Shown here: positions 5,733-63,760 of the stretch, one piece after another
Layout: every line of letters starts with the position of its first letter
How positions within the stretch are numbered: position 1 is the first letter of the stretch
Source: Lepidostoma basale
Lineage: Eukaryota; Arthropoda; Insecta; Trichoptera; Lepidostomatidae
NCBI GenBank assembly: GCA_022606425.2
Contig: JAHDVF020001519.1
Span: forward strand, 310,001-374,000
Direction of reading: 5' to 3'
Length of the DNA: 64,000 nucleotides
Program-made: the position numbers and the translations under genes
Notes under the pieces: generated by a model
Told to the model about the DNA's origin: nothing
What the model saw: the letters and a program-made list of their open reading frames with translations, nothing else
Database searches by the model: none

Positions 5733-5985
5733 AAATGATTCAACAAAAATCTCTTGATGGACATTCATTTAAAATAATAATTAAATAAAAATATGTTTTT
5801 TCATAACTATTTTTACTTTTGTCTTTATTTTGACAGCAACCGGCTTCGCCAGGCTCGCTGGCATCGACAGACTGGTCAGTTTGTCGATGCCAGCGAGTCT
5901 GGCAAAACTGGTCGCTGTCGGAATAGAGACAAATATGGAAGTTGTTATAAAAAATATCGTTATATTTAATATTGATTCATTTATT
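5733..5985. mobile_element. HH1-class foldback element
   Basis: It starts with the HH1 end (ctcttgatgg then aataataattaaataaaa) and contains two inverted hammerhead-like cores meeting near 5865 (left arm ccaggctcgctggcatcgac, right arm gtcgatgccagcgagtctgg). The right copy has lost GAAAC (it reads aaaact). Confidence 0.8.
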
Positions 5986-5992
5986 TTTCTCA

Positions 5993-6065
5993 TTCACAAA
6001 TGAGACGTGACAACTGAAAAACATTTAGGCGACTCATTTGGACACAAAATAGTAAACGAAAATTC
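5993..6065 (-). mobile_element. LINE A2, 3' UTR scrap
   Basis: It matches the 3' end of the A2 copy at 21800-21875 (ggcgactcatttggacacaa). Confidence 0.65.
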
Positions 6066-6127
6066 CATATCGATACAAAACTAAGAAATCACAAAATAAT
6101 AATAATATACTATTAGTATTTGTATCT

Positions 6128-6322
6128 GTAACCATTTAATTTGGTAACACCAACCGGTTTCGCTCCCGCCGGAGCTTCTTTAGGGTGAGAGAGTGAACTA
6201 AACGTAAAATCAGAGAACAACATATGAAGAAAAAATCACAAAATGGAGGGGAGAAATAAAGGTAGGAGAAAGTGTGCGCGAGGACGAATTGAATGTTAGA
6301 ACGGTGAGTCATGATCATTAGG
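6128..6322. mobile_element. HH2-class element with inner spacer
   Basis: The left arm carries a minus-strand core (ccaaccggtttcgctcccgc in plus). The interior (gtaggagaaagtgt, gaacggtgagtcatga) also occurs in the HH2 element at 56608-56830, so a spacer-containing form of this element exists. Confidence 0.75.
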
Positions 6323-6659
6323 GAAAAATTATGGAGAATTTCTGATTAATATTTTAGCAGCGGATCAGAAGAGTTAAATATATATTATAATACTCAAAAG
6401 TTATTTTTAATGGGGAACGTGGCTAAAATGGGGCTACGGGAAAGATTACTTTAATTATTAAGAGATATTTGAGTAAAGGGCTTTCTATATTTCTAATACT
6501 TCCAAGTTATCTAATTTTAGACATGGGGAATTTTTGTGAAGCATTTTCAGGCCAGAATCTTTAAGAAATATTTGGTTTGTCTCTTACAGATGGTAGGCGA
6601 ACTAAGAGAAACATTTACTATTCAGACATCTGAGATGTTCCTTCACCTTTACGTTTATC

Positions 6660-7085
6660 ACCGTTTATTTTTTTTATTTAATAATGTCACGCCACAAATT
6701 AAGTGCTTCATACGAAAATTTTAAGAAATAACATACGAGTATCTCAAAAAGTTCACAAATATTTCGACGTCAATGAGGAGGTACTTTTTCCAGAATTGAT
6801 AATATGTTTTTTATGAACACCGCCTAACTGACACTAAATATGTTCAAATCCGAGACGATTAAATTCAACGTCCGAATTGCTCTTTCTTTTGGCATCACCA
6901 AAGGTGGATGGTTCTGCGTGACGGAACAAAGAATGATTTATGCCAGCGTTGTCGCAGAATCAGCTTGAAAAAAATCGTCGCTATAAATCCTTCTCTCCTC
7001 AATTCAAGGGTGTTATGCCCTAGTATACCCACGAGAAATCATAAACGTTTATGTCTAAAGAATACACAATTAGCTTTTGAAACTG
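6660..7085 (-). mobile_element. LINE A2 3' fragment
   Basis: On the minus strand it encodes degraded pieces equivalent to the A C-terminus (around RTIHLWCCQK-type remnants with the PVG.AI...SDL.IFSVS region) and matches 21785-22262 throughout. Stops and frameshifts are frequent. The plus-strand open frame here is a shadow. Confidence 0.75.
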
Positions 7086-7540
7086 TGTTTGTTAATATTA
7101 ATTAGAGGTAAAAGTTATACGCTTACGAGTATGTTATTTGTTTTAACAACAAATTATTTGTTTAAAACGCTTCGCTTCCATAAGAGCTTCACCAGGATCA
7201 GATAAAAATGATTCTGAACAGAATGTTTGCTGAAGAACCCTTATGAAGCTCAGATGAATAAAGAAATAATAAAGCTTCTAGAAAACAAGTAATTTCAGTA
7301 TATTAATTATAAGAATGGGGGTGATTCTAGGATGCTACTTGTGAACGCACTCTTCCGTAAAATCAATCATACTTCCGGATACATTCCCTGTCGTGATCAT
7401 TTCCCAATACCTCCGTCACTTTCCTGTCGTATATATTTTGGTATAATTAATCCACGGGCTTACGTCACGTAAACGTAAACAGTCACAGTACAAAAAAATA
7501 TTTTTCTTTGATAAGGTTCATAGATTATTTTCTGTTATAA

Positions 7541-7580
7541 GTAAATAATTTCCGTTTTGATTAAAACGGAAATTATTTAC
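7541..7580. repeat. perfect 18-bp palindrome
   Basis: gtaaataatttccgtttt (7541-7558) is followed by a 4-base loop and its exact reverse complement (7563-7580), abutting the broken 5' edge of a T copy. Confidence 0.95.
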
Positions 7581-7753
7581 TTAAACAAAGTGAATGATGC
7601 ACTTAAAGTTGATATCGAAAAGAAAAACCTATCCAAAAAAGCTAAAATGGCCGGGCACAATGGTGTTCTTATACCGACCCTTATTTATGAAAGCGAAGCA
7701 TGGAAGTGGCAAAAGAAGGATAGAAGTAGAATAAATCCAGTAGAAATGAGATA
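7581..7753 (+). mobile_element. LINE T internal fragment
   Basis: It reads KVNDALKVDIEKKNLSKKAK, then NGVLIPTLIYESEAWKWQKK and INPVEMR, then stops. This is the region just upstream of the GHMERM segment. There is no 3' tail. Confidence 0.85.
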
Positions 7754-7769
7754 ATATTAATTAAGAACA

Positions 7770-7862
7770 CTTGTTTATTTTTTTCACACTATTTTATTTT
7801 GTTTTATCGAACCAACCGGTTTCGCTCCTGCCGAAGCTTCGTCAGGGTTATTCATAATTCAA
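7770..7862 (-). mobile_element. HH2-class element, one arm
   Basis: The minus strand carries CTGACGA, an A, a GCTTC/GGAGC stem, GAAA and CCGGTT, followed by GGTT. It is one arm only. Confidence 0.75.
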
Positions 7863-8364
7863 TATCTACAAAGATGTTTTTCTATCATGATGGCTAAGGC
7901 GGATATCAAAATAAACTTATAAATATCAAGTATGCGTATAAATCTTTACATAACGTGATATTCCAACACAGCATTCATTTACAATCGTTGCCATATTAAG
8001 TCAGTAAAAAAAAAAAAATTATTTCATTTTTTGATACGAAATCGTATTCGAATATAAAATAGAATTGTGAATATCGTATATCGTAGAAGAATTACATTTT
8101 TATGAGCAATTAAGTTAAATCTGCGCCAAAATCCCATTCCTTTTTATTTTCTACCCCTACATGCTAAGGGGTAGCTTAGGGGGTGCGTATTATTCTCTCC
8201 ACGTGGAATAATACAAATCAGGGGATGAAAATGGATATCTTGATAATGCGAGTCAGCAAATCGTCGCGGATATGAATCTGTATAATTTAGAGCAGCTTTA
8301 GACGTGAAAATGAGGCAGATTTTCTATTAATGCTGTACATTTTTTCATTTCAATAATTATTTCT

Positions 8365-8505
8365 TTACTTCCTCTTCTTCTTCTTCTTCTTCAGCCTGTA
8401 TTGACCCTCCACTCCTGGACGTAGGCCTCCTCTCGCATTTTCCATTCTCTTCTATCCTGAGCGATCCGCATCCAGGCACGTCCTGCACTTCTCCGGATGT
8501 TTAAA
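8365..8505 (-). mobile_element. LINE J 3' end with (GAA)n tail
   Basis: The minus strand reads AGRAWMRIAQDRREWKMREE, then AYVQEWRVNTG and a stop, followed by GAAGAAGAAG. The AxDRxxW...EEAYxQxW pattern ends many arthropod RTE-group proteins. Confidence 0.75.
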
Positions 8506-8744
8506 TATTTGACGTACTCCAAACAACATTTTTTTATTTTTTTAAGACAGTGATAAAAAAAAAAATTGCACTTTTTTGTATTTTATTTTCTAACGCAGAA
8601 GTAATTTTTAGTGTTCAAATTTCAACAAGTAAAGTGGGTAAAAATATATACTGACGATGGACATCTGAAGTCCGAAACTTCTTTTCAAAAGTGAATATTA
8701 TAATGAAAATACAATATTTTTTTAAAAATATACAAAAAGGTTTT

Positions 8745-8890
8745 TCAGTCTTTCAGACCTTAAGATTGAGAGGTATCCTCCGAAACATGTCGTGTTTTTT
8801 TAAATATTTTGTGGTTATAAATCAAAGTTTTTTTTAATTTCCTAAATATTATTATGAAATTCCACAGTATTAATGCTTTAGCTTTCAATT
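8745..8890 (+). mobile_element. HH5-class element, one arm, degraded
   Basis: It shows a gaggtatcctc hairpin followed by CGAAACATGTCGTG. The flank (tgaaattccacagtattaat) also occurs beside HH5 at 45379 and HH7 at 42660. Confidence 0.65.
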
Positions 8891-9768
8891 GGGGTTCTTT
8901 TTATTCAATTTTTTTCGAAACAAAAAATCAATTAAATTTAAATATTTGCAAAACTGTTTTGAAAGCTTTTTAGTTCCCATACTTACAAAAAAAAATAGAA
9001 ATAATTTGTTTCATTGTACTATATTTACGCTTGTGTATTGAATAGCAAGCTTAATTATAAGTCTCTCATTGATTAAACTTATCACGAAGCAAAACTTTAA
9101 TATTATGTATTAGCACGACCATTCATCTCAAGCTACCTTACATTGTCTACAAGTTGCCATTAATCAAATTTATCACAAAAGCCCTACAAGGATTACGAAA
9201 TAATCAAAAATTATTTTCTATTGTATTAACATTCTTTCGACACTTTCACAATACTACGATACTTTTGGCGAACCCAAAATATTCACATCTGATAGACTTA
9301 CTTTCTTGTGTGGTAGAGTTTTGATTATGTTTCAAAGAACAAATTTGTTAATGCCTAATTGTATATAATACTTGGACGTCGTTATAAACATTATTTAGAA
9401 AAAGATCTAGTAAATTAAATCAATTTGGTAGAAAGTAATAAACTCTCTTATGAAATTAGAATAAGGTATAAAAGCTTTGCGCGGCGTTTGTTACAACACG
9501 CCTTTACTTAAAAAGTATTTATATAAGTTACACGAAGCAATTTGGTATTTTCGCAAGTTTATGGATTATATTATATTCTTGGGCTTACTTTCTTAATAAC
9601 TCAAGAAAAATATACATAATACCGTTATATGTATACAAGAATTCATCGTGTAGAAAAGTAGTTTTAGAAATATATATATTTTAGGTGTTTTATGTATAAA
9701 GTATAGCATGTGTATTGTTGCTAAAGCAATCAAATGGAACTAAGTTTATTATTTATGCGAACATGACA
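8891..9768. other. AT-rich stretch, nothing recognised
   Basis: No coding frame or repeat match up to the TA-flanked MITE. Confidence 0.4.
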
Positions 9769-9770
9769 TA

Positions 9771-10370: not shown

Positions 10371-10424
10371 TATTCCATAGTTACCCACAATAGTCGTAAG
10401 CTTTTATCAGAAACGGTGAATTAT

Positions 10425-11004: not shown

Positions 11005-11005
11005 G

Positions 11006-11115
11006 AAACTGTTAAATTAAAAAACTTTGTTTTTGTAATACAATTGTATTTTATTTTACGCGACAGCTGTTTCATCAACCTACCTTATCATCAGGTGTTA
11101 CAATAATATATCAAA
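11006..11115 (-). mobile_element. HH4-class element, one arm
   Basis: The minus-strand core is intact at CTGATGA, GAAA and CAGCTGTC, but stem II is weakened (TAAGG...GGTTGAT). The arm attccaattg-type spacer plus tattttattttac is shared by all HH4 copies. Confidence 0.8.
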
Positions 11116-12559: not shown

Positions 12560-12740
12560 AGAAAATTATGCAAAATGTCTTTATTATTATGTATTAAGTG
12601 TACTTCCAAGTGTGTTTATGTTCGACCGGTTTCGGCAGCTTGCTGCCATCTTCTGGTATGGATTTTGTGTAATTTTTTATTGTTTTCATTATTTAAAATG
12701 AACTTCTACCAAAAAATTTCAATTAAAAACATTAATTATT
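12560..12740 (-). mobile_element. HH3-class element, one arm
   Basis: It carries the core at 12620-12658. The distal arm (aaaatgaacttctacc) resembles the HH1 arm (aaaatgaacttccatc), which ties the two classes together. Confidence 0.75.
12620..12658 (-). ncRNA. hammerhead-like motif, HH3
   Basis: The minus strand reads CAGAAGA, U, stem II GGCAG/CUGCC with a CAAG loop, GAAA, CCGG, UC. The core differs from CUGANGA by U4 to A. Stem I is barely supported, with one pair next to the core. Confidence 0.55.
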
Positions 12741-14894: not shown

Positions 14895-15110
14895 TCTTGA
14901 ACAATGATGTTAAACTCCATATAAAATTATTAATATGTATAAAAAAACGACAGTTTTTAATGAGTCTTATTATAATATTTATTTATGACATGTTTCGCCC
15001 CTCTAAGGCATTATCAAATGTCATTTCATAATGTCTTAGAAGAGCGAAACATGCCATACATGAATATTATAATAAAACTCCTTAAAAAATATCACATATT
15101 TTGAAGATAA
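14895..15110. mobile_element. HH6-class foldback element, two arms
   Basis: It begins ttgtttcttgaacaatgatg. Two inverted cores face each other around 15022 (left on minus, right on plus, the latter with CATGCC replacing CATGTC). Confidence 0.8.
14981..15022 (-). ncRNA. hammerhead-like motif, HH6, with U3/A8
   Basis: The minus strand reads UUGAUAA, U, stem II GCCUU/GGGGC, GAAA, CAUG, UC. Relative to CUGANGA, position 3 is U and position 8 is A. Stem I is short (AU/AU). Confidence 0.5.
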
Positions 15111-15705: not shown

Positions 15706-15929
15706 ACTGTTAATGAAAAAACTTTGTTTTTATATCACAATTGTATTTTATTTTACCACAGCTGTTTCATCAACCAATGTTGGCATCATCAGGTGTTACA
15801 ATGATGTCAAAATTGGTCTATGAAACAGCTGTCGTAAAATAAAATACAATTGTGATATAAAAATAAAGTTGTTTAATTAACAGTTATAAAATGTTAAAGT
15901 ATCATTGTGTTTCGGCCAAAACAATGGAC
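15706..15929. mobile_element. HH4-class foldback inside HH1
   Basis: Two arms each carry the acaattgtattttatttta-type flank and a hammerhead-like core. The left (minus) has CTGATGA, T, GCCAAC/GTTGAT, GAAA but GTG in place of GTC. The right (plus) ends GAAACAGCTGTC but lacks CTGATGA. It is flanked by near-identical aaataataatt-type direct repeats, consistent with a target duplication in the HH1 host. Confidence 0.82.
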
Positions 15930-16147
15930 TATTTAAATAATAATTAAATAAAACAATGTTTTTTTTATATTATTTCCACTTTTGTCTTTATTTCGACAGC
16001 AACCGGTTTCTCCAGGCTCGCTGGCATCGACAGACTGGTGACACTGTTATAAATTTTATTATATTACTGTTTATCACAGTGTTATCAGTCTGTCGATGCA
16101 AGCGAACGTGACGAAACCGGTCGCTGTTGAAATAAATACAAAAGTGG
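15930..16147. mobile_element. HH1 element, right part, two cores
   Basis: caaccggtttctccaggctc and, inverted, gacgaaaccggtcgctgttg mark two opposed cores. It is cut at the T copy starting 16148. Confidence 0.85.
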
Positions 16148-19607: not shown

Positions 19608-19806
19608 TTAAATGATGTTTTTTTAACTACTTCTACTTTTGTCTTTATTTCGACAGCGACCGGTTTCGCCAGGCTCGCTGGCATCGACAGACTGGTTTGG
19701 TGTACCCAGTCTATCAATTCCAGTAAAAACTACGTTTTATTTAATTGTTTTTTAAAATGAACTTCCATCAAGAGATTTCAGAAATATCTTTTGTTTTCAT
19801 ATAATA
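19608..19806. mobile_element. HH1-class foldback with central deletion
   Basis: The left arm has the complete core sequence. The right side is the inverted distal arm (atgaacttccatcaagagat), but the second core is largely deleted. Confidence 0.8.
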
Positions 19807-21163: not shown

Positions 21164-21262
21164 ATTTCTTCATTATTTTTTCCATGGGTCCAAACCATCT
21201 TGATGTTCCTTTCATAACACTTTCATTCGCACTGCATTTACTTCTTATATTTTTATTCTGAG
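21164..21262 (-). mobile_element. LINE T copy, 5' part
   Basis: It continues the copy at 20608 through codons of KGTSRWFGPME and NKKYK-type sequence, then stops. Confidence 0.85.
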
Positions 21263-21784
21263 GATAGCGGTCACCTCTGAAATATGTTGTTATTTTTATT
21301 TTATAAAAATATTTAATAAATTAAAACATAATCAGCGTTTTTTTTTAGTTTTAAGGTTTTTAAACACCTGTATATAGAGGGCACATTTTTTTTTGCAAGT
21401 ACATAGGCTGCTATATCCGCTACAGGGTAGTTGCAAGGAATGGAACCGCGATAATGACCCACTTTCTCAGTACTTCACGCTTCAAGAGAATGTTCACTTT
21501 TGAATCCCCCCTCTACAGGGTGGGTGTGCTGGAGTGCCGAACACTCAACTTTCACATTCCGTGTAGTGTCTTTGCATTTGTTAAATAAAAATACGAAAAA
21601 TTTGAAACATAAGGGTCCTAGCGTATCTCGACCTTAGTACTTAACTTTTGAGATAATAAACAGCTTATTTTATCTAACCAACTCCATCTTAAGGGGCAGG
21701 CAGAAATAATGGACTTCATTTATTCATTTATTCATTTTAAACATATCTTAAAGGATTAAAGAAATTTTTTTCCAATGCACTAAA
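21263..21784. other. unassigned stretch
   Basis: 21395-21580 looks code-like on minus (HPVEGGFKSEHSLEA, then PFLATTL in another frame), perhaps a LINE end. I could not assign it. Confidence 0.3.
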
Positions 21785-26689: not shown

Positions 26690-26845
26690 CAAGGATAATT
26701 ATTTTATTTTAAGTTTATATTTTTCGACATGCTTCGAAGACAATCATCATCGGGAGAACGATATAAACTCGAAAAAGAAACCAAAAATGTTTTAATTTAA
26801 AAAAAATCGGCCATGTTCAATTTCACAGTATTAATGTCCAATCTA
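26690..26845 (-). mobile_element. HH7-class element, one arm
   Basis: The minus core reads CCGATGA, T, GATTG...TCTTC, GAAG, CATGTC. The flank ttcacagtattaatg is shared with HH5. Confidence 0.7.
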
Positions 26846-27194
26846 AAAAAAATTCATGACTTTCATAGTTTTAATTATTTTTTAAGTCCATATATAAAAC
26901 GTGAATTGCTTAAAAATGGAGGAACATATCGGAAAGAAGGGTTTTTGGCGAGAACAAAATTAATAGTGCACTCAATGTCATCATTGCAAATACACATAAC
27001 ATCTGTCAAAACTGATCATATTTGTATTTTAAAAACGATCGTATCTTTATAATATCACTAAGGAAGGACCGGGTTGTCCAAAACATTTCTGATATTTTTT
27101 TTTCTTTTTTAACGTTTGTGGTGTATACAAAGTATTTTAAAAAAGAGAAAGACAAATTAACATTTACATTTAAGCAAATATGCCAGTGTATAAA

Positions 27195-28379: not shown

Positions 28380-28455
28380 AATAAAAATATTAAAACACGA
28401 CAATGTTTCTTAGGTGACCTCTATCTTCAGGTGTAAGTATATAAGTAAAATATAA
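28380..28455 (-). mobile_element. HH5-class element, one arm
   Basis: The minus strand reads ACAC, CTGAAGA, T, AGAGGTCACCTAA, GAAA, CATTGTC, GTG. The core block is exact, with one extra base in stem III. Confidence 0.75.
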
Positions 28456-29029: not shown

Positions 29030-29110
29030 AATTTTTAATATGTATAAAACCCTGAGGAAGCTCGCATAGAGCGACACCGGTAGGCCCTCATTCTCAAAAA
29101 TCAAGTGGTT
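29030..29110 (+). mobile_element. HH10-class element remnant
   Basis: A single hammerhead-like motif in a stretch without inverted arms. The C-rich segment upstream (28915-29000) is unassigned. Confidence 0.5.
29050..29084 (+). ncRNA. hammerhead-like motif, HH10
   Basis: It reads CUGAGGA, A, stem II GCUC/GAGC, GACA (one change from GAAA), CCGG, UA, with a 2-bp stem I (CC/GG). Confidence 0.4.
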
Positions 29111-30644: not shown

Positions 30645-30900
30645 AATAGTTCATTGTTTTGGCTAAAACACTAAGATACCTTAACATTTTTAACTGATCA
30701 AATAACTTTGTTGTTGTATCACAATTGTATTTTATTGTACGCGACAGCTGTTTCATCAACCTATCAGGTGTACATTATCAGGTGTTACAATTGTAATTGT
30801 AACACCTGATGATGTCCCCATAGGTTGATGAAACAGCTTTCGCTTAAAATAAAATACAATTGTGATGCAACAACAAAGTTATTTGATTTAACAGCTTAAA
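30645..30900. mobile_element. HH4-class foldback element, two arms
   Basis: Begins ttcattgttttggc. The right (plus) core has CTGATGA, T, GTCCCC..., GAAA, CAGCTTTC. The left (minus) core keeps GAAACAGCTGTC. Confidence 0.85.
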
Positions 30901-31475: not shown

Positions 31476-31504
31476 CAGACTCTTATTGTATTATAATTTT
31501 TTTT

Positions 31505-31670
31505 AAGATAATCAAATGATTTTACTGAAATCTCTTGATGGAAGTTCATTTTAAATAATAATTAAATAAAACGATGTTTTTTAACTACTTCCACTTTTGT
31601 CTTTATTTAGACAGCGACCGGTTTCGCCAGGTTCGCTGGCATCGACAGACTGGTAACACTATTGTAAACT
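31505..31670 (-). mobile_element. HH1-class element, one arm
   Basis: It has the complete distal arm (atttTACTGAAATCTCTTGA) and one core. Confidence 0.85.
31612..31652 (-). ncRNA. hammerhead-like motif, HH1
   Basis: The minus strand reads stem I CAGU, CUGUCGA, U, stem II GCCAG/CUGGC with a CGAAC loop, GAAA, CCGG, UC, then stem I GCUG (three pairs plus a wobble). A6 is U in every HH1 copy here. Confidence 0.6.
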
Positions 31671-36149: not shown

Positions 36150-36225
36150 TTTTATTGTATATTTTTACACATGAGGATGGATTAATCTTCCGAAACATGT
36201 CGTGATTATTAATTGTTTGTGAATA
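36150..36225 (+). mobile_element. HH5-class element, one arm
   Basis: ATGAGGA, T, GGATTAATCTTCC, GAAA, CATGTC, GTG. The core differs from CUGANGA at C3 and U4. Confidence 0.6.
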
Positions 36226-38409: not shown

Positions 38410-38668
38410 AAAAATATTATTATTATTATTATTTTGTTGAATCGCTCTTTACATCATGACAGCATGAGCCAAATCCATGTAAAGTGTATTATATCTATCA
38501 TAGTGATTCTCGTGACATGTGATAGGTAGCTAATATATCGCCAGTTTTTTGTCACGTGAATTCGCCAGACCAAAGACAGTGTGACACTCACACTGCCCTC
38601 GCCAGGAATCGAACCCGGAATCTTCGGGTGGCAGTCAATGCACTTACCACTAGGCCACGAAGGTCGTC
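38410..38668 (-). mobile_element. tRNA-derived SINE, full length
   Basis: Minus strand: head GACCTTCGTGGCCTAGTGGT, B-box GGTTCGATTCC, body and TAA-repeat tail. Confidence 0.92.
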
Positions 38669-42529: not shown

Positions 42530-42700
42530 AGTGCTATAAATGACGATTTTATGAATTAAAACACTGTTTATTCCAGTTTTCAGTTTATTGTTCTCGACAT
42601 GTTTCGAAGGCTGACACCTTCATCATCGGGAGAATGATTTTAATTCATAAAAAACTGGTCATCATGGAATTCTACAGTCTAAACGCCTTAAGTTTATCTT
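42530..42700 (-). mobile_element. HH7-class element, one arm
   Basis: Carries a complete core. The flank tcatggaattctacagtc resembles those of HH5. Confidence 0.8.
42591..42634 (-). ncRNA. hammerhead-like motif, HH7, with full stem I
   Basis: Minus strand: stem I UUCUC, then CCGAUGA, U, stem II GAAGG/CCUUC with a 6-base loop, GAAA, CAUG, UC, then stem I GAGAA (5 of 5 pairs). The one core departure is U4 to C. Confidence 0.65.
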
Positions 42701-45344: not shown

Positions 45345-45378
45345 TCATATATTTAAACAGTTAATAATGTTGAAATAT
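45345..45378. mobile_element. HH4 end, left part, split by HH5
   Basis: acagttaataatgttgaaat is HH4 distal sequence. It resumes at 45651. Confidence 0.75.
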
Positions 45379-45635
45379 TGAAAGTTAAGGCATTAACACT
45401 GTGGAATTTCATAGTTATCTACTTTGGGAATTAATTAAACATTGTTTAGACCACTTTTTTAAGAAAAATATATTAAAATACACGACATGTTTCAGAGGAT
45501 ACCTCCATCTTCGGGTGTAAAAAATATAAAAATTATATATATTTTTTACACCTGAAGACGGAGGTATCCTCTGAAACATGTCGTGTATTTTAATTTTTTG
45601 GTGGTCTAAACAAAGTTAAATAATTCCCAAAGTAG
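45379..45635. mobile_element. HH5-class foldback with 15-bp target duplication
   Basis: ATAATGTTGAAATAT flanks both sides (45364-45378, 45636-45650). Two opposed hammerhead-like cores sit in arms ending atctactttggga/tcccaaagtagat. The left arm extends about 40 bases further (gcattaacactgtggaattt). Confidence 0.93.
45547..45587 (+). ncRNA. hammerhead-like motif, HH5, all helices present
   Basis: Stem I UACAC; CUGAAGA (exact CUGANGA); C; stem II GGAGG/CCUCU (one G-U) with a UAU loop; GAAA; CAUG; UC; stem I GUGUA (5 of 5 pairs). The expected cleavage site is after GUC at 45582. Confidence 0.72.
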
Positions 45636-45650
45636 ATAATGTTGAAATAT

Positions 45651-47580: not shown

Positions 47581-48221
47581 CTGAGCAACCATAAATAAAT
47601 AAAGTTTTGTTAACAAAATATTAAAAAAAAATACAATTCAGTAATGTTCGCAACATCCGATTTTAATTGAATTTTTAAGCCCAATTCTTTTGGAAAATTT
47701 TACAATCATTTGTTTCCCTAGTCAAAAACAAAAGCAAGCGAGCATAACCAACGAAATCGTCAAAATTTTCCAAACAGCATTTACATAAATCGGGCTCACT
47801 CTGACCCCTGACTGAAAAAACCTAAGTTTTTTTTTTACAGTTTTCGAAAGTTTTTTCTCCCTTGCCTAAACTCAGGCAATCATGAGCACCTGTTATTTTT
47901 ATGGGAAATCTTGACATGGGCGGCTCGTGAACTTTATTTTAAAAGTAGACTGTAAAAACACGCTACTAGGCACAAAGTATGCGAATGACTCGCCCAACTG
48001 TTTGTATTTTGGATTTATTATAAGGCCGACGTACGTTTTTTTTCCTTTATCGTTTAATTTCGTTTTTTGTGTTTTAACAAAAATAAATTTTGCCAATATA
48101 CCATTAACGGCAATATTGCATTAATAATTTGATTTGAATAAATTGAAAAATATTGTATTTTCACAACACTTTCGCATTTATCACAAATTAAAAAATTTCA
48201 TTCACTTTTAGTAATTTGTAT
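47581..48221. other. unassigned stretch
   Basis: 47700-47900 has near-even composition but no recognised frame. Confidence 0.35.
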
Positions 48222-48242
48222 TAGCACCAATTTATTTGGTAA

Positions 48243-48282
48243 CACCGACCGGTTTCTCTCTCGCCGGAGCTTCGTCAGGGTG
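48243..48282 (-). ncRNA. hammerhead-like motif, HH2 left
   Basis: Minus strand: stem I CACC, CUGACGA, A, a weakened stem II (GCUCC opposite AGAGA), GAAA, CCGG, UC, stem I GGUG (4 of 4). Confidence 0.6.
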
Positions 48283-48298
48283 GGAGAGTTTACTATCT

Positions 48299-48338
48299 CA
48301 TCCTGACGATGTTCCGGCGGGAGCGAAACCGGTTGGTG
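48299..48338 (+). ncRNA. hammerhead-like motif, HH2 right
   Basis: Stem I CAUC, CUGACGA, U, stem II GUUCC/GGAGC, GAAA, CCGG, UU (GUU triplet), stem I GGUG (three pairs and one wobble). Confidence 0.65.
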
Positions 48339-48392
48339 TTGCCAAATAAAGTGGCCTTAATACAAATTACTAAAAGTGTATTATTATTTTAT

Positions 48393-49890: not shown

Positions 49891-50077
49891 TTTATTGTTT
49901 TTTGAACAATGATGTAAAACTCCATATTAAATAATTAATACGAATGAAAAAACTTATGTTTTTCTAGAAGTTTTATTATATTGTTTTATTATATTATGAC
50001 ATGTTTCGCTCTTCTAAGGCATTATCATAATGTTATTAGGCATTATCATTATCATAAGTTTTTTCATTCGTATTATT
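49891..50077. mobile_element. HH6-class foldback with 9-bp target duplication
   Basis: ATCAACGGA flanks both sides (49882-49890, 50078-50086). Arms aatacgaatgaaaaaac and ttttttcattcgtatt. One diverged core on minus (AUGAUAA, U, GCCUU/GAGC, GAAA, CAUGUC). Confidence 0.92.
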
Positions 50078-52004: not shown

Positions 52005-52180
52005 CGTACAATATCAACCAATGGTGTTAGCTAATACCTGATGATGTCAACATAGGTTGACGAAATAGCTATCGTGAAAATAATGAAATAAAAAGTGTGA
52101 TACCATAAACAAAGTTTAATAATTAAATAGTTATTAATGTTGAAATATCATAGTGTTTCGGCCAAATCAATGAATGACGA
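52005..52180 (+). mobile_element. HH4-class element, one arm
   Basis: Contains an intact core and the HH4 end (atcatagtgtttcggcc). Confidence 0.85.
52035..52076 (+). ncRNA. hammerhead-like motif, HH4, exact conserved bases
   Basis: CUGAUGA, U, stem II GUCAAC/GUUGAC (6 of 6) with an AUAG loop, GAAA, UAGCUA, UC. Stem I is short (UAC/GUG, two pairs and a wobble). The GAAA/UC and CUGAUGA blocks match the hammerhead consensus exactly. The one extra U before stem II is the departure. Confidence 0.7.
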
Positions 52181-56607: not shown

Positions 56608-56830
56608 ACTTTATTCGTTAAAAACCCCAACCGATTTCGCTCCCGCCGGAGCTTCGTCAGGATATCAGAATTTACTTCACATAAAATCAGATAACAAAAT
56701 ATAAAAAGAAATATAAAGTGGAAAGGAGATAGAAAGGTAGGAGAAAGTGTACACGAGGACAAATAGAATGGTAGAACGGTGGGTCATGAACGAAACCGGT
56801 TGGTGCTTATAACAAATAAAGTGGTTTATA
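56608..56830. mobile_element. HH2-class element with inner spacer
   Basis: Left arm: a minus core CTGACGA, A, GCTCC/GGAGC, GAAA, TCGG. The right arm has gaacgaaaccggttggtg without CTGACGA. The inner spacer is shared with 6128-6322. Confidence 0.88.
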
Positions 56831-57532: not shown

Positions 57533-57748
57533 AACTTAGTTGTTAATTGAAATTTATTGGTAAAAGTTCATTGTAAATAATGAAAATAGAACGATTAAAT
57601 TCAAAATTATTTTATAATATGTATTTTGTTTAATTACACTTGGATTTATGGCTTCGACCGGTTTCGGTAGCTCGCTGCCATCTCCTGGTCAAATCAGCGA
57701 GAAGCTGCCGAAACCGATCGAAACTATAAAACCAAATGGAATTAAACT
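57533..57748. mobile_element. HH3-class foldback element, two cores
   Basis: The left (minus) core is CAGGAGA, U, GGCAG...CUACC, GAAA, CCGGUC. The right is truncated before CTGCCGAAACCGATC. The distal arm aaatttattggtaaaagttc matches HH3 at 12700. Confidence 0.8.
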
Positions 57749-58280: not shown

Positions 58281-58554
58281 AACCGGATTTAAACTTTATA
58301 TACGAGTATATAAAAGTATAAACCATCCAGAAACCCATTCAAACACACACAAATAATTTCATCAAAATCGGTCCGTTTTGGAGGAGTTCAGTGACATGTA
58401 CAGAAGAATGTTATATATGAAGATATAGTATACTTCATATGTCAATACTGTGAAGCTCCTTAATTATGATTTTTTATTTAACTAAGTTCTCTAATTATGA
58501 TCCGTTATTTAAGAACGGGGGTTATTATTACACCAAACGGAATAATTGGGGATT
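58281..58554. other. AT-rich stretch, nothing recognised
   Basis: No frame or repeat match. Confidence 0.35.
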
Positions 58555-58985: not shown

Positions 58986-59039
58986 AAGAACACAGCTCGG
59001 TTGATCTGCATTCTTAAGGCTGGGCAAAATCTTCAAGTC

Positions 59040-59525: not shown

Positions 59526-59940
59526 GACGAACTAACCATTACGCCGTTTCCCCGAAGAGATAGACAGAGAGGAGTACCTCACTCTGCTCTAGCCTGGCGT
59601 ACCTCTCGAGTATCCTCTACATTCACGCATCGTAACAAGCAAGCTCGTCGATTTTTCTTGCTTCGAGTGTGGCCGCCTTTTAGTATTTGATGCTTTATTT
59701 GGTCTTCCATGGCTTCTCTTGCCATTCACACTGCTTGTAAACAACATTTTAAGTGTCCTTCTTTTGTCCATTTGATCCAAATGCCCAATTTAATTAATTA
59801 ATAATTACTTATGATGCAATTTTGTGCCATATATTTCTTCCTTATTTCGTCGTTTGGTATTCTATCACATATTGTTTTCCCATGAATTCTTCGCAGAGAT
59901 TTCAAGTCTACGGTATTTATCCCCTTTTGACATTTTATCC
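59526..59940 (-). mobile_element. LINE T copy, divergent sublineage
   Basis: aactaaccattacgccg terminus. The frame 59589-59780 reads NGKRSHGRPNKASNTKRRPH-type sequence. 59815-59940 holds the upstream RRI..NTKR part. Confidence 0.82.
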
Positions 59941-60189
59941 CAATTATATTTCAAAATACAAATGATATTTTTTTCGTTTCTCTTACTCTAAATATTGTTT
60001 CTTGTTTTAAGGAGAAAGGTATCTAAGGGATTTATCTCGAATGATATTTAATTATAATAACTAAATAGTCTTTCAGTAAGTTTTCTTGTTTTTGATACAA
60101 AGACTATATTTCTTGTATGAAATTTGATTTGTGATCTCTTCTGGGAGGCCATTAAACCAGTTTTATCCAATTAACAATCCTTGGAAAAA

Positions 60190-60335
60190 TATAATTGAAA
60201 ATTGTGTTACAGCCCTATTTATTTTCACTGAGAACAGACATGTTTCGGTTACAAGTAACCTTTAACAATATATTGTATAAATTACAATTTTAAGCTAAAA
60301 TGGTATACATAAGTAAGTTAAAATTTAATTAAAAT
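60190..60335 (-). mobile_element. HH8-class element, left arm
   Basis: The minus core reads UUGUUAA, A, GGUUAC/GUAACC, GAAA, CAUGUC. Split from its right arm by HH6. Confidence 0.78.
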
Positions 60336-60489
60336 TAATACGAATGAAAACATCAGTTTTCAAGCCTTAGAAGGGCGAAACATGTCATTCCCATTAAATA
60401 AAATAAAACTTCCAGAAAACTGACGTTTTCATTCGTATTAATTATTTATTATAGAGTTTTACGTCATTTTTCAAGAAAAAATAATTGAA
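60336..60489. mobile_element. HH6-class foldback inside HH8
   Basis: Long arms aatacgaatgaaaacatc and gttttcattcgtatt. One plus core remnant (GCCUU/AAGGGC, GAAA, CAUGUC). AATTAAAA may be its target duplication. Confidence 0.78.
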
Positions 60490-60580
60490 TTAAAAATTTT
60501 AACATTGACAAAGGTGACTTGTAACCGAAACATGTCTGAGTTCAGTAAAAATAAAAAGTGTTGTAATACAAAGTATAATT
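60490..60580 (+). mobile_element. HH8-class element, right arm
   Basis: Contains the core and the HH8 end tgagttcagtaaaaataaaa. Confidence 0.8.
60503..60538 (+). ncRNA. hammerhead-like motif, HH8, with U3/A8
   Basis: UUGACAA, A, stem II GGUGAC/GUAACC with one mismatch, GAAA, CAUG, UC. Stem I is CA/UG. Position 3 is U and position 8 is A, as in HH6. Confidence 0.5.
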
Positions 60581-60589
60581 AAAAACTAA

Positions 60590-60898
60590 CTAACTAACCA
60601 TCACGACATCTCCCCGAAGGGGTAGGCAGAAAGAATGGACTGCCACTTTTTTTTTCCTGACATATTTCTCTCGCTTCCTCATAATTCAAACATCGTATCA
60701 TGCACGCGCGTCGCTTTCTCTGACTCCGCACATGCCCGAAATTCAACATTTGATTTATTTGATCGTGCCACGTTTTCCTCGGTCTTCCTCTATTTCTGGT
60801 TCCGTTTACATCATTAACATATACTTTTTTTACCATTCTTTCTTCATTTATTCTTTCCATATGTCCAAACCCTCTTAATGGTCCTTTCATCAATTAAG
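60590..60898 (-). mobile_element. LINE T copy
   Basis: 99 open codons from MMKGPLRGFGHMERINEERM through RNRGRPRKTWHDQINQMLNF and KRRACMIRCLNYEEAREICQ. TTAG tail. Confidence 0.92.
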
Positions 60899-60980
60899 TA
60901 TAATTATATTTATTCAAATATGAATCAACAACACAAAGTAAAGGCGAATATAGAAGAACATAAAAACAATGATTTTACTT

Positions 60981-61121
60981 AATTGCGTAGATTTTCACGG
61001 TTGGCAGCAATATGTTTGTTGTGTTTTTACCCTGAAGATGGAGACTGCAACGATCTCCGAAACGTCGGTCGAGAAGAAGTTACTGAAATCACACGGTGTT
61101 ACCCAAAAACACAACAAACAT
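60981..61121 (+). mobile_element. HH9, 141-bp element with 13-bp target duplication
   Basis: AATGATTTTACTT flanks both sides (60968-60980, 61122-61134). An inverted repeat TATGTTTGTTGTGTTTTT / AAAAACACAACAAACATA brackets one hammerhead-like core. Confidence 0.93.
61029..61069 (+). ncRNA. hammerhead-like motif, HH9
   Basis: Stem I ACC; CUGAAGA (exact); U; stem II GGAGA/UCUCC (5 of 5) with a 9-base loop; GAAA; CG; UC; stem I GGU (3 of 3). Stem III is the 4-base palindrome ACGU. Confidence 0.72.
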
Positions 61122-61134
61122 AATGATTTTACTT

Positions 61135-61591
61135 GTTTATTTAACTAAATGTAACCCTTGTTCTTTGATAACTGACTCAAAGCAAAGTAATTATTCTGTG
61201 TTTTAACTTTTAAAATCTTCAGTAGAACAAATTTCAGAATAAATTTAATTACACTTTATCTTAAAAATAGTTCCATTATATGCAACTTCTTTACGCTGTA
61301 TAAAAGAACTCTTTTCAAATGCCTTGAGCGATTTAATTAAAAAGCAGTGTTTTACGAACACCGTAACAAAACAACCGACAGTTGGTTATCCCTGACTTTG
61401 TGTATTATGGAAGCTCCTGAAAGGAAGCAATTTGTCAACAAAGGTAATAATTTGTTCTGCGTTTCTTTGTCGAATAACCAAATTAATGGAATGAGTTATG
61501 CCTCAATTGAACACTCCGGAAAAAAAGGAATAAAAAAAAAAACAGTGAACACTGAATTGTATAAAATATATTTGTTAATCGAAGCTGACTC
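61135..61591. other. AT-rich stretch, nothing recognised
   Basis: The 85-codon frame at 61347 has no recognisable domain. Confidence 0.3.
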
Positions 61592-62240
61592 ACTAACTAA
61601 CTAACTAACCATCACGCCGTCTCCCCGAAGGGGTAGGCAGAAAGAACGAACTGCCACACTTTTCTTTCCTGACATATTTCTCTCCCTTCCTCAACATTCA
61701 TACATCGTGTCATGCACGCGCGTCGATTTCTCTGACTCCTCACATGGCCGACATTCAATATTTGATTTATTTGATCGTGCCACGTTTTCCTCGGTCTTCC
61801 GCTATTTCTGGTTCCATTTATATCGTTAACATATATGTTTTTTACCATTCTTTCTTCATTCATTCTTTCCATATGTCCAAACCATCTTAATGATCCTTTC
61901 ATTATTTTGTTTATTCGCACCGCATTCACTTCTTATATTTTCATTCGACACTATATCATACACAGAGTATCCACACATTCGTCTAAGAGATCTCATTTCT
62001 ACTGTATTTATTCTACTTTCATCCTTCTTTTGGTAGTTCCATGCTTCGCTTCCACACATAAGAGTCGGTAGAGAACACCATTGTGCACTGCCATTCTAGC
62101 TTTTTTGGATAGGTTTTTGTTTGCGATGACAACTTTAAGTGCACCATTCACTTTGTTGCCTGCCCCAACCCTTCTTTCAATTATCCTCTCCACTCGCCAT
62201 CTCCATCTCTTGTAAACATACTATCTAAATGCACGAACTC
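61592..62240 (-). mobile_element. LINE T copy, longest upstream reach
   Basis: The T end with TTAG tail. Frames include NKIMKGSLRWFGHMERMNEE and RMCGYSVYDIVSNENIRSEC. Upstream the frame reads MERIIERRVGAGNKVNGALK then VVIANKNLSKKARMAVHNGV, show the order of the post-RT part. Frameshifts near 61915 and 62070. Confidence 0.92.
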
Positions 62241-62384
62241 AACTACTCGCTCCAAATTATATACTCGTAATATAATCATTTGATTATTATTTGATGTATA
62301 TATTTATTTTGTTTTTGACAAAATGAAAGTGTTTTTTTTTATACATAATTTAGATAATTCTACAATTTTACTTCAATACAGAGC

Positions 62385-62437
62385 TGTTTTTGAGTGTGAA
62401 GGTTAGAAGAGTCTCATATTTGGGTCATGTGCTAAAG
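62385..62437 (+). mobile_element. LINE D internal scrap
   Basis: Reads LSVKVRRVSYLGHVL, the middle of D. Confidence 0.65.
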
Positions 62438-62449
62438 GTAAAAGCAAAG

Positions 62450-62545
62450 ATAGCAGTTCATAATGGATTTTAAGTGCCAAATCTTATCTATGTAATTGAA
62501 GCTTGGAGCTGGCAAAAGAAGGATGAAAGTAGGATAAATGGGGTT
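62450..62545 (+). mobile_element. LINE T internal scrap
   Basis: KAKIAVHNGF, VPNLIYVIEAWSWQKKDESR, directly after the D scrap in the same orientation. Confidence 0.75.
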
Positions 62546-62599
62546 AATTCGGTGTCCCGAAACATGGTTGTTTTTGTTTTTAAATATCAATTTTGTTAC

Positions 62600-63275
62600 T
62601 TTAATTAGTTATAATGAATAAAGTTCAATAAATGTTCAAAATTTTTAATGAAAATTACATTGAAATGAGTCTACTTCACGGGGCGGCAACAAAGGATTTA
62701 CTTTATCGAAGCGAATTGAAATAATTTGCGTAGCATTGTTGCAATACTTTCTTTTAAACTATAACATAATATTTACTGGATCGGTTGTACGCGAGTCGAT
62801 TATCTGCATTGAAGTCCCTTTTAATATACATCATTTTTTGTTTTATTGTGCGGTGCGAGAACGAACACAATGCGGATGGTTTGCGGACACGTGATACTAC
62901 GTACAATAGACCGTGAGAGAAGCATTCATTTTCTAAATTCAGGCCACAAACCCCCAAGGATTGACCTTGTGATTTGTTGATCGTCATGGCGAATAATACA
63001 TAGCGCCACAGAGTCGATTATTTGAGGCAAGCGTTTATTTCATATCATCAAAAAAGCCGTTCCACACAAAATGTATGAGAAAATAATTATTCTGTATAAT
63101 TTTTTTTCGTGATTTTTCCAATAAATTAAAATTGGTATTCTGCTTTGAATAGCAGGACATCCCGAAGGACGGAGACAAATTCAACTAATCAAAGATCATA
63201 AAAATCAGTTCAGCCGTTCGTGAGTTATAAAATGGTGTAACTAACACAATTCTGTTTTGTCTACTCGTATACTCG
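62600..63275 (-). mobile_element. Helitron with helicase remnant
   Basis: It shares gacggagacaaat, atcaaagatcataaaaatc and cagccgttc with the Helitron copies at 27773 and 28164. Termini are not clearly preserved. Confidence 0.78.
62754..63000 (-). pseudogene. Helitron RepHel, C-terminal helicase fragment
   Basis: The minus strand reads MTINKSQGQSLGVCGLNLEN, ECFSHGLLYVVSRVRKPSAL and then diverges to a stop. TINKSQGQSL...GL.L...CFSHGQLYVA.SRV is the closing helicase motif of PIF1-type helicases as found in Helitron Rep/helicase proteins, which drive rolling-circle transposition. The rest of the protein is missing. The SRV block has lost the A/C before S, so it reads VVSRVRK. Confidence 0.9.
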
Positions 63276-63624
63276 TATAGTATTTATTAATGTTTTGTTT
63301 TACTCAAGAAAATACATGTCATTACTACTCAACGATAATTGATTAAACAAAAATTACATCTCAGTTTTGTGACATCACTGATCAAATGTCCTTTCATATT
63401 TGTGTATTAAATGTTTAATCCAAAAGGCTTCTTACACCAACTTACCGGAAGTAGCAGGTGCGTGAAAGTAGCGAATTTTAATTATTGTTGGTAGCCTCGA
63501 AGATTGTTTTCAGTAAGCTTTCATAAATATCTGTTTTGTATAAATTTTTAGATATCGTGTTCTATATTCTTGTACATTTTACCATTTTTTTTTCTTCTTT
63601 TTTATGATGTTTTTCCTCTTTTAA
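63276..63624. other. unassigned stretch
   Basis: No frame or repeat match. Confidence 0.35.
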
Positions 63625-63760
63625 GTTTGCTTTTCTCGACATATTTCGAAGGTTTTGGACCTTCATTATCGATAGAAGGATATTAATAGTTTATTACTTT
63701 CGACGATTAAAGTGTAAAACCTTCGAAACATGCCGAGAAAAAAAAACTATAAAGTGAAAA
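63625..63760. mobile_element. HH7-class foldback element
   Basis: Left (minus) arm: ATCGATAATGAAGGTCC...CCTTC, GAAA, TATGTCGAGA. The right (plus) arm has aaaaccttcgaaacatgccg. Both cores are diverged. Confidence 0.75.

What the first reader, a model, noticed from the sequence alone, without database searches (positions are those of the whole stretch)
5733..63760. Ten classes of short mobile elements, each built on a hammerhead-ribozyme-like core
Scattered through the window are about 35 short elements whose centre repeats one plan: a CUGANGA-like heptamer, one extra base, a stem II of about 4-6 bp, GAAA, a palindromic stem III and UC (or UU/UA). Class heptamers are HH1 CUGUCGA, HH2 CUGACGA, HH3 CAGAAGA, HH4 CUGAUGA, HH5 and HH9 CUGAAGA, HH6 UUGAUAA, HH7 CCGAUGA, HH8 UUGACAA, HH10 CUGAGGA. 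Stem II sequences are unrelated between classes but pair within each, which is what selection on structure would give. Stem I pairs in several (5 of 5 in HH5 at 45547 and HH7 at 42591, 4 of 4 in HH2). Hammerheads are known in Penelope-like elements and retrozymes. So many classes in 64 kb, all with an extra base before stem II, would be notable.
Basis: partly seen in the sequence, partly recalled or inferred. Interest (0 to 1): 0.92.

Follow-up and report, generated by a model that had tools for sequence, protein, structure and literature searches.

The report
Hammerhead RNAs in Penelope retrotransposons
The scattered hammerhead-like RNA motifs are real, and the best-studied of them are the start segments of a known kind of insect jumping gene (Penelope-like elements), built with one extra RNA letter in the hammerhead core.

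Summary
A covariance model finds 26 hammerhead-like cores in the window at E<0.01 and 35 at E<1. Cores picked by sequence alone show stem I and stem II pairing, stem II only with one base skipped after CUGANGA. Of 32 distinct strong cores, 31 carry one extra base (U 21, A 9, C 1). Class HH1 is the 5' end (pLTR plus tail) of a Penelope-like retrotransposon (PLE) with reverse transcriptase and GIY-YIG: a core lies 384-401 bp after 30 of 30 ORF ends and 98-99 bp before the ORF start in 19 of 19 places with both. HH1 copies are head-to-head, exactly one arm tailed in 16 of 17 pairs, with 9-14 bp target duplications in 14 of 16. HH5 borders a second PLE; HH9 has the core AUG as apparent ORF start; other classes rest on start-like peptides or less, and HH2 loci hold no PLE coding match. 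Minimal dimeric hammerheads in PLEs are known, and one- or two-base insertions there are on record. Less expected: the uniform extra base, and a class with U3-A8 for C3-G8. Cleavage is untested.

The parts
31612..31652 (-). HH1 core (CTGTCGA + T), the HH1 copy of the window with the longest upstream match (58 nt)
   Evidence: E 2.4e-9; 55 matches reported, 40 of 1431 first-look candidates scored
31677..31684 (-). TATA box (TATATAAA); its TATAAA starts 31 bases before the A of CCAGT next to the core
   Evidence: sequence, distance counted by hand; use as a promoter is inferred
31498..31549 (-). Tail of the HH1 copy: start of the PLE ORF, MNFHQEISVKSFDYLK
   Evidence: ATG 99 nt from the heptamer; same in the tailed copies of other loci
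19654..19694 (-). HH1 core
   Evidence: E 1.2e-9
5797..5954 (.). Head-to-head HH1 insertion: cores 5834-5874(-) and 5877-5917(+)
   Evidence: inverted repeat; E 1.5e-7 and 1.9e-6
15997..16126 (.). Head-to-head HH1 insertion: cores 15997-16037(-) and 16086-16126(+)
   Evidence: E 9.4e-7 and 2.4e-5; sequence
48200..48381 (.). Head-to-head HH2 insertion: cores 48243-48282(-) and 48299-48338(+); MSHHKLSASYE after the right core
   Evidence: inverted repeat, 90-nt arms; E 7.8e-8 and 4e-11; peptide
6148..6187 (-). HH2 core
   Evidence: E 1.4e-10
7810..7849 (-). HH2 core
   Evidence: E 1.9e-11
56625..56664 (-). HH2 core
   Evidence: E 7.7e-8
12620..12659 (-). HH3 core (CAGAAGA + T)
   Evidence: E 8e-10; an inverted ORF-start-like piece MNFYQKIS lies beside it at 12698
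57652..57691 (-). HH3 core
   Evidence: E 2.4e-5; MNFYQ downstream, by eye
52034..52077 (+). HH4 core (CTGATGA + T, 8-nt palindrome)
   Evidence: top score of the looser scan; E 5.3 with the model; MLKYHSVSAKSM downstream
15756..15796 (-). HH4-like core in a palindromic insertion, MNFHQEILVKSLDY downstream
   Evidence: E 0.18; peptide
30802..30843 (+). HH4-like core in a palindromic insertion
   Evidence: E 6.1, weak; same class by eye
11058..11098 (-). HH4-like core, damaged
   Evidence: E 0.52
45467..45599 (.). Head-to-head HH5 insertion: cores 45480-45518(-) and 45548-45586(+); the left arm carries the tail MKFHSVNALTF
   Evidence: 62-nt arms, 94% complementary; E 2.1e-9 and 2.1e-10; tail
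45364..45378 (+). Left copy of the 15-bp target site duplication of the HH5 insertion
   Evidence: ATAATGTTGAAATAT on both sides
45636..45650 (+). Right copy of the 15-bp target site duplication; the target reads like another PLE tail (MLKYHS)
8755..8795 (+). HH5-like core, MKFHSINALAF downstream
   Evidence: E 0.00055; peptide
36167..36205 (+). HH5-like core
   Evidence: E 0.00011
28395..28434 (-). HH5-like core
   Evidence: E 0.0065
21254..21292 (+). HH5-like core
   Evidence: E 0.0012
8647..8687 (+). Core of unassigned class (CTGACGA + T), just before the HH5-like core at 8755
   Evidence: E 0.0019
14983..15021 (-). HH6 core TTGATAA (U3, A8), MEFNIIVQETIN downstream
   Evidence: E 0.044; U3-A8 in the 4 distinct HH6 cores that passed the scan
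49994..50030 (-). HH6-like core, damaged, MEFYIIVQKTIN downstream
   Evidence: E 0.15
60362..60386 (+). HH6-like fragment
   Evidence: E 0.041
42592..42633 (-). HH7 core (CCGATGA + T), stem I 5 pairs
   Evidence: E 7.1e-8; an inverted MEFYSLNA start lies just upstream (read by eye)
26722..26757 (-). HH7-like core, damaged
   Evidence: E 0.19
63638..63676 (-). HH7-like core (TCGATAA)
   Evidence: score 6.6, weak; not in the model list
60233..60272 (-). HH8 core (TTGTTAA)
   Evidence: E 9e-5
60501..60540 (+). HH8 core (TTGACAA; U3, A8)
   Evidence: E 0.0014
61028..61070 (+). HH9 core; the core AUG opens a frame that runs through the tails
   Evidence: E 0.00038; 91 matches reported, 40 of 818 first-look candidates scored; frame open to the end of the copy in the 6 arms printed from 5 short loci
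29048..29086 (+). HH10 core (CTGAGGA + A)
   Evidence: E 7.9e-5
27054..27093 (+). Eleventh class (CTAAGGA + A, stem II GGAC/GTCC)
   Evidence: E 1.3e-5; likely relatives L031 5403-5442, L018 329-367, by eye

Best explanation
The cores are minimal type I hammerhead motifs, with a palindromic stem III suited to act as dimers, in the 5' ends (pLTRs) of several families of Penelope-like retrotransposons in an insect-like genome. For HH1 the layout is TATA box, start of the RNA just before stem I (inferred), hammerhead with one extra base, about 65 nt of leader, then the PLE ORF (MNFHQEISVKSFDYLK...). The short elements are what such PLEs leave when reverse transcription starts at one of two fixed sites near the ORF start (shown for HH1 as two 3' ends, with and without tail) and runs to the 5' end of the RNA (inferred): a pLTR-sized copy of about 100-160 bp, often joined head to head to a second copy. 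The extra base sits between A9 and stem II. In HH9 it is the U of an AUG (A9-U-G10.1) that opens a frame running through the tail, so there the ribozyme core and the start of the protein seem to overlap. In HH1 the same AUG opens, in most copies seen, only an 11-codon upstream frame, and the ORF starts further down. Whether the RNAs cut themselves, and what for, is not shown. That the unassigned classes (HH7, HH8, HH10, HH11, and HH2 in part) are PLEs too is inferred from the shared core and layout.
For: PLEs in the genome: 62 GIY-YIG matches (150 of 541 candidates scored); a 758-aa open frame carries RVT_1 and GIY-YIG, with 1343 relatives among 7995 candidates scored, those listed with an organism being insects. 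Linkage: 30 of 30 ORF ends of this family found in the first 38 loci are followed on the same strand by an HH1 core at 384-401 nt, 389 in 19 (some loci overlap, so fewer insertions). HH5-type cores lie about 270-310 nt after the last coding match of a second PLE family in L004, L014, L016 and L018. ORF start: 25 ATG places of the MNFH type, 19 with an HH1 core recognised upstream, at 99 nt in 18 and 98 in 1 (L006/L029 and L022/L026 are the same places and L031/L032 look like one insertion); homology stops about 14-17 codons later. The peptide resembles, by eye, N-termini of relatives (MEFHQV, MDFHQV, MFHQVP). One damaged copy, L066, runs from hammerhead through ORF start into the PLE ORF. PLE signatures: head-to-head arms up to 1.4 kb; exactly one tail in 16 of 17 HH1 pairs; shared flank of 9 bp or more in 15 of 16 pairs against 3% of 130 mismatched pairs (one of the 15, L032, is a TA repeat). 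M.FH-like starts follow 9 of 35 window cores against 4.6% of random places; two are not independent and one (7810, MLRFHK then stop) is doubtful. Structure, cores chosen by sequence only, 23 clusters: stem I 2.39 of 4 pairs against 1.51 dealt anew, stem II with one base skipped 3.0 against 2.12, both 0 of 2000; with no base skipped 1.83 against 1.62, 252 of 2000.
Against: No cleavage data. HH1, the family best tied to a PLE, has U at core position 6 (CUGUCGA), where A is conserved and, from general knowledge, important; HH3 and HH7 change U4. Of 7 cores folded alone, only HH5 and HH7 give a clear hammerhead-like stem I plus stem II. Where short copies begin near the core they begin 5' of the cleavage site (10 of the 40 best HH1 rows at query base 7, six before the heptamer; 40 of 54 longer HH9 rows five before it), so uncleaved RNA seems to be the template; in the Anolis PLE, ribozyme mutants inserted normally and no RNA reads began or ended at the cut site (PMC11167929). 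No intact pLTR-ORF-pLTR copy was found. None of the 11 HH2 loci (L044-L054) and not the window gave a PLE coding match at E 1e-6 (34 of 51 sequences did), so HH2 is tied only by a start-like peptide. HH7, HH8, HH10 and HH11 were not tied to a PLE ORF; HH9 only by structure. HH5-type cores in L011 and L017 lie farther from the coding match (about 860 and 450 nt).
Confidence: 0.88

Rival explanations
1. The elements are independent short non-autonomous retroelements (metazoan retrozymes) that spread as small circular RNAs cut out by their hammerheads.
For: HH2 occurs as three tandem 130-bp units in one place (L054), retrozymes are short tandem repeats with type I hammerheads (PMC7229834, passages), and no PLE coding match lies near the 11 HH2 loci.
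Against: HH1 copies carry a PLE ORF start and lie at fixed distances from a PLE ORF; copies end at fixed sites and begin 5' of the cleavage site, not at it (the lists hold only the best-scoring copies); of the ten HH2 loci cut out, none shows a tandem array in the 9 places printed. Published retrozymes carry canonical type I hammerheads with loop-loop contacts.
Confidence: 0.12
2. The elements are MITEs or other DNA transposons whose terminal inverted repeats happen to hold a hairpin.
For: Several window copies are near-perfect palindromes.
Against: Single, non-palindromic copies exist; HH1 arms differ by a tail on one side only; duplications vary from 9 to 15 bp; arms extend into an RT/GIY-YIG ORF.
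Confidence: 0.02
3. The cores are not ribozymes at all: a conserved protein-binding or promoter-proximal hairpin of PLE RNA that only resembles a hammerhead.
For: HH1 lacks A6; monomer folds are mostly not hammerhead-like; insertion of the Anolis PLE does not need cleavage (PMC11167929).
Against: CUGANGA, GAA, a palindromic stem III ending in U-H and pairing stem I recur across unrelated classes. Among 28 distinct cores with U4, A6 and A9, the 3-8 pair, which touches only in the folded core, is C-G in 21, U-A in 4, A-G in 2 and G-G in 1, with no U-G or C-A. Anolis PLE RNA with such a core is cleaved in the presence of its protein (PMC11167929).
Confidence: 0.2

Closest known systems
Minimal type I hammerheads of Penelope-like elements (Cervera and de la Pena 2014; Lunse, Weinberg and Breaker 2017; both known here only through passages and reference lists of other papers)
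   Same: location in PLE pLTRs, missing or minimal helix III and dimeric action, thousands of dispersed copies in animal genomes (PMC7761336, passages)
   Different: one extra base after A9 in 31 of 32 distinct strong cores here; whether the published consensus has it could not be read (papers not held)
PAc, Poseidon PLE of Anolis carolinensis (PMC11167929)
   Same: hammerhead at the pLTR-ORF junction, ORF start at the beginning of stem II, cut site 26 bp after the ATG (29 in HH9 here, counted by hand), AC-rich region at the tail, two 3' end sites differing by the tail
   Different: in HH1 and HH5 the ORF starts further downstream of the core; cleavage untested here
Endonuclease-containing Penelope elements of Adineta vaga (PMC3846280)
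   Same: head-to-head inverted pLTRs, tail on one of the inverted pLTRs, target duplications of 8-10 bp, pLTR that includes the ORF start (passages)
   Different: there low copy number, here hundreds to over a thousand first-look candidates per class searched, those seen mostly solo or truncated; duplications 9-15 bp
Plus-strand hammerhead of chrysanthemum chlorotic mottle viroid
   Same: one extra A in the plus-strand hammerhead (PMC3705267, figure legend; the exact site, between A9 and stem II, is recalled)
   Different: a viroid, type III and monomeric (recalled); here mostly U, type I and palindromic

Membership tests
Penelope-like element | one ORF with reverse transcriptase and GIY-YIG endonuclease | tested here: met
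   L032 ORF: RVT_1 E 1.4e-13, GIY-YIG E 6.6e-5; HH1 cores follow 30 of 30 ends of this ORF; HH5 cores lie by a second family; not shown for the other classes
Penelope-like element | head-to-head inverted pLTR arrangement with a tail on one arm only | tested here: met
   16 of 17 HH1 pairs have exactly one tail, L012 has none; HH5 pair in the window likewise by its flanks; HH9: 4 of 5 short loci by eye, L075 seems to have two
Penelope-like element | target site duplication of variable length at AT-rich sites | tested here: met
   9-14 bp in 14 of 16 HH1 pairs; L032 lies in a TA repeat and L031 gives 4 bp; 15 bp at HH5
Penelope-like element | complete pLTR-ORF-pLTR copy with tandem pLTRs | tested here: inconclusive
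   no intact copy found; L066 is damaged but has same-strand cores before and after ORF pieces
Penelope-like element | each of the ten or eleven classes tied to a PLE ORF or ORF start | tested here: inconclusive
   HH1, HH5: ORF and start; HH2, HH3, HH4, HH6, HH10: start-like peptides only, partly by eye, with no PLE coding match in 11 HH2 loci; HH9: open frame and paired arms; HH7: inverted start-like peptide by eye; HH8, HH11: none
Hammerhead ribozyme, type I minimal | core CUGANGA ... GAA-A15.1/U16.1-H17 | tested here: met
   of 31 distinct one-extra-base cores 21 without mismatch to CUGANGA, 7 with one, 3 with two; H17 is C in 23 and U in 8 (the scan itself asked for at most two mismatches). 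HH1 departs at A6, HH6 and HH8 at 3 and 8
Hammerhead ribozyme, type I minimal | stem II directly after A9, as in the canonical core | tested here: not met
   stem II pairs above the control only with one base skipped
Hammerhead ribozyme, type I minimal | match to Rfam hammerhead models | tested here: not met
   none at gathering or E 10 in the window, nor in two short stretches; RF00008 rang neither here nor in the 14 control genomes, so says nothing on absence
Hammerhead ribozyme, type I minimal | self-cleavage after H17 | not testable with these tools
   needs an experiment
Metazoan retrozyme | canonical type I hammerhead in short tandem repeats, no link to an ORF | tested here: not met
   minimal cores, PLE ORF links for HH1 and HH5; for HH2 open: one tandem array (L054) and no PLE coding match

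The most novel reading that the evidence does not exclude
In this lineage all PLE hammerheads use a +1 core: one W (U or A) between A9 and stem II. The extra base arose as the U of the PLE start codon (A9-U-G10.1), so cleavage of the core and translation of the ORF exclude each other on one RNA. Families that moved their ORF start downstream (HH1, HH5) kept the base, some changed it to A, and at least one class replaced the C3-G8 core pair by U3-A8, a natural compensatory hammerhead.
Probability: 0.25. Interest if true: 0.6.

Novelty: new member of a known kind. Interest (0 to 1): 0.4.

Why it matters
It explains much of a dense and puzzling set of repeats by a known retrotransposon group, and gives several independent families in one genome on which the function of PLE hammerheads, still called unknown in a review (PMC7761336, passages), can be tested. 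The uniform extra base and the U3-A8 class are concrete structural predictions, and the fixed 5' and 3' ends of the short copies suggest that uncut RNA, copied from an internal start, makes the solo pLTRs.

Tried and rejected
Rejected: MITE reading for HH1 (one-sided tail, variable duplications, ORF in arms); microRNA hairpins (sub-threshold Rfam miRNA matches lie in part on the palindromic insertions); the idea that the core AUG is the main start in all classes (wrong for HH1, where MNFHQ starts 99 nt after the heptamer; HH2 mostly has A there). A distance of 350 nt from ORF end to HH1 core, first read from merged matches, was wrong, with the family's own ORF, gives 384-401. Copies that begin exactly at the cleavage site: none in the HH1 rows, but that list holds only the best-scoring copies; in HH9 two second arms begin at the first base after it (L073, L074) among seven short second arms (starts 28, 64, 68, 68, 87, 87, 89), which may be chance or fold-back priming through stem I. 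Core pair 3-8: the scan asked for U4, A6 and A9 and so left out HH1, HH3, HH7 and HH8; damaged HH6-like copies at 49994 (ATGATAA) and L072 (TTGATGT) do not keep U3-A8. Species: not identified; relatives listed with an organism are moths, butterflies, locusts and leaf beetles. Alignment A4, used for the model and, was chosen by a scan that required stem II and stem III, so its pair counts (91% of cells paired) are circular for those helices; searches are the non-circular test. N-termini of 120 relatives: 3 matched the patterns for hammerhead-coded residues, of which one (P0046) looks spurious; no weight is put on it. For one search I took the 35 model matches at E<1, dropped 10634, 33807 and 48445, and added 52034, 30802 and 63638.

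Full report
What was checked. The window lies in contig C636 of an unnamed 769-Mb genome. A scan for heptamer, stem II, GAAA, palindrome and UH found 11 cores with one extra base and at most one heptamer mismatch, against 0.0 in 20 Markov sequences, and none without the extra base; a looser scan agreed. A covariance model (R1, from 12 cores, 5 of them from the window, alignment A4) gave 26 matches at E<0.01 and 35 at E<1 in the window with filters off. In 50 kb taken at five round coordinates of large contigs it gave 7 at E<0.01, about a third of the window's density. That sample is small; scaled up it would mean on the order of 100,000 in the genome. In 36 of the first 38 loci (all but L001 and L003) it gave 70 at E<0.01, none of them in L034 and L035, which come from bacterial-looking contigs.

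The extra base. Cores were also chosen by sequence alone (heptamer within one mismatch, GAAACNNGTH after 12-24 nt) and clustered. Of 23 clusters (75 places, 41 distinct cores), 11 had 4 of 4 stem II pairs with one base skipped and none with zero, two or three. With more loci (111 places, 55 distinct cores, again 23 clusters, 10 of them 4 of 4) stem I averaged 2.39 of 4 pairs (1.51 when partners were dealt anew), stem II with one base skipped 3.0 (2.12), both reached in 0 of 2000 deals; with no base skipped 1.83 (1.62), reached in 252 of 2000. Among 32 distinct cores at score 11 or more in window and loci, 31 have exactly one extra base; the one without is an AT-rich probable chance match (GC 0.10). 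The base is U in 21, A in 9, C in 1. Distinct here means different in sequence; many belong to one class.

Core pair 3-8. With positions 3 and 8 left free and U4, A6 and A9 required, 28 distinct cores gave C-G 21, U-A 4, A-G 2, G-G 1, and no U-G or C-A. All four U-A cores belong to HH6, so this is one inherited change; the HH8 copies at 60501 (TTGACAA) and 60233 (TTGTTAA) and one HH7-like copy (TCGATAA at 63672) have U and A as well, by eye, while two damaged HH6-like copies do not keep the pair (49994, L072). Both changes are transitions, so decay is not excluded.

What the elements are. A GIY-YIG search of the genome gave 62 matches from 150 scored of 541 candidates; the first and third best are bacterial UvrC. 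Among the rest is a 758-aa frame (L032, and its apparent duplicate L031) with RVT_1 and GIY-YIG, closest to PLE-type proteins; those listed with an organism are from insects. tblastn with 120 of these relatives and the L032 ORF found PLE coding pieces in 34 of 51 sequences; it found none in the window, in L002, in 4 of the 5 sample loci, or in the 11 HH2 loci L044-L054. With the L032 ORF alone, all 30 ORF ends found in 22 of the first 38 loci are followed on the same strand by an HH1 core at 384-401 nt, 389 in 19 of them (L006 and L029, and L022 and L026, are the same places). HH5-type cores lie about 270-310 nt after the last coding match of a second PLE family in L004, L014, L016 and L018, and farther away in L011 and L017.

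The HH1 unit. Long copies read TATATAAAGG, 31 bases from TATAAA to the A of CCAGT (counted by hand), the core, AATAAA, a short leader, then ATGAACTTCCATCAAGAGATTTCAGTAAAATCATTTGAT.... Of 25 ATG places of this type, 19 had an HH1 core recognised upstream, at 99 nt in 18 and 98 in 1. The peptide MNFHQEISVKSFDYLK resembles, by eye, the N-termini of relatives (MEFHQVPTTTSIECIK, MDFHQV, MFHQVP). A damaged copy, L066, continues from core and MNFHQE, with a frame change, into VKSFDYFKKANEATLKKHYLKLNVKLRMAT and on into the known ORF region. Copies end either before the ATG or after the tail. In 17 head-to-head pairs exactly one arm has the tail in 16 and none in 1. A shared flank of 9 bp or more is found in 15 of 16 pairs tested (36 bp of TA repeat in L032; the failure is L031), against 3% of 130 mismatched pairs. 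Arms reach 1.4 kb (L033), and L038 is a 2.3-kb palindrome. These are the marks described for Penelope elements in Adineta (PMC3846280, passages) and in part for the Anolis element PAc (PMC11167929, main text).

Other classes. In the window, an M.FH-like start lies 52-166 nt downstream of 9 of 35 cores, against 4.6% of 4000 random places. Two of the nine should be discounted: at 45548 the peptide MLKYHSI belongs to the target of the insertion, since the flanking 15-bp repeat ATAATGTTGAAATAT marks the end, and 8647 finds the same start as 8755; a third, MLRFHK at 7810, stops after six residues. Similar starts that the pattern missed are MNVHQEI (HH1), MNFYQ (HH3), MEFNIIV and MEFYIIV (HH6), MSNHLEI (HH10), read by eye. 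HH2 has 54 reported matches, 40 of 1183 candidates scored, and one place with three tandem 130-bp units (L054). HH9 has 91 reported matches, 40 of 818 candidates scored; 40 of the 54 longer rows other than the window itself begin at query base 28, five bases before the heptamer (tally typed). In five short HH9 loci the frame opened by the core AUG is open to the end of the copy in the six arms printed (METATISETSVEKK...KSHGVTQKH...), one of them running on into the neighbouring arm. [quoted passage not shown] the distance here is 29.

How it probably works. Shown, for HH1: position of the core before the ORF start, two fixed 3' ends, one-sided tails, target duplications. Inferred: transcription from the TATA box, reverse transcription started at the tail sites inside the RNA, running to its 5' end, giving the 100-160 bp solo units, and fold-back or template switching giving head-to-head pairs. 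Not shown: cleavage. The 5' ends that lie near the core lie before the cut site, so the copied RNA was mostly uncut; half of the best HH1 rows reach the query's own end and say nothing on this. HH1, with U6, may hardly cut, yet its best 40 rows are 95% or more identical, so mobility does not seem to need an intact core.

Against known kinds. PLE membership is met on ORF domains, arrangement, tail and duplications for HH1, and in part for HH5; other classes are placed by weaker evidence, and HH2 may yet prove something else. The hammerhead reading is supported by core and pairing but departs from the canonical core by the extra base, matches no Rfam model, and is untested for activity. [quoted passage not shown] The two founding papers on PLE hammerheads were not held, so no claim is made that the extra base is unpublished.

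Literature seen: passages of PMC7761336, PMC6155905, PMC4918200, PMC3705267, PMC3846280, PMC7229834 and PMC10085705; passages and the main text section of PMC11167929; search listings.

Noticed in passing
L034 (C102:19500-25500) and L035 (C729:132500-139500): UvrC-type proteins in long open frames: these contigs look bacterial, so the assembly seems to hold a symbiont or contaminant.
   Followed up: partly
L054 (C192:3580600-3581500): Three same-strand HH2 units at 130-bp spacing next to an inverted unit.
   Followed up: partly
L073 (C457:424120-424320), L074 (C1094:600600-600880): Second arms of two HH9 head-to-head copies begin at the first base after the predicted cleavage site; two of seven short second arms listed, possibly chance or fold-back priming through stem I.
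   Followed up: partly
window 45364-45650: The HH5 insertion sits in what reads like the tail of another PLE (MLKYHS), an insertion into an insertion.
   Followed up: yes
window 44502 (minus strand): A further HH1-like stretch (heptamer and 5' side of stem II) found by pattern but not by the model.
   Followed up: no
window 2118-4987: LINE-like reverse transcriptase frames (two overlapping open frames); the nearest listed relative of the first is 59% identical over 92%.
   Followed up: partly
window 38594-38664: tRNA-like match on the minus strand, just above the Rfam cut-off (33.3 against 29 bits).
   Followed up: no
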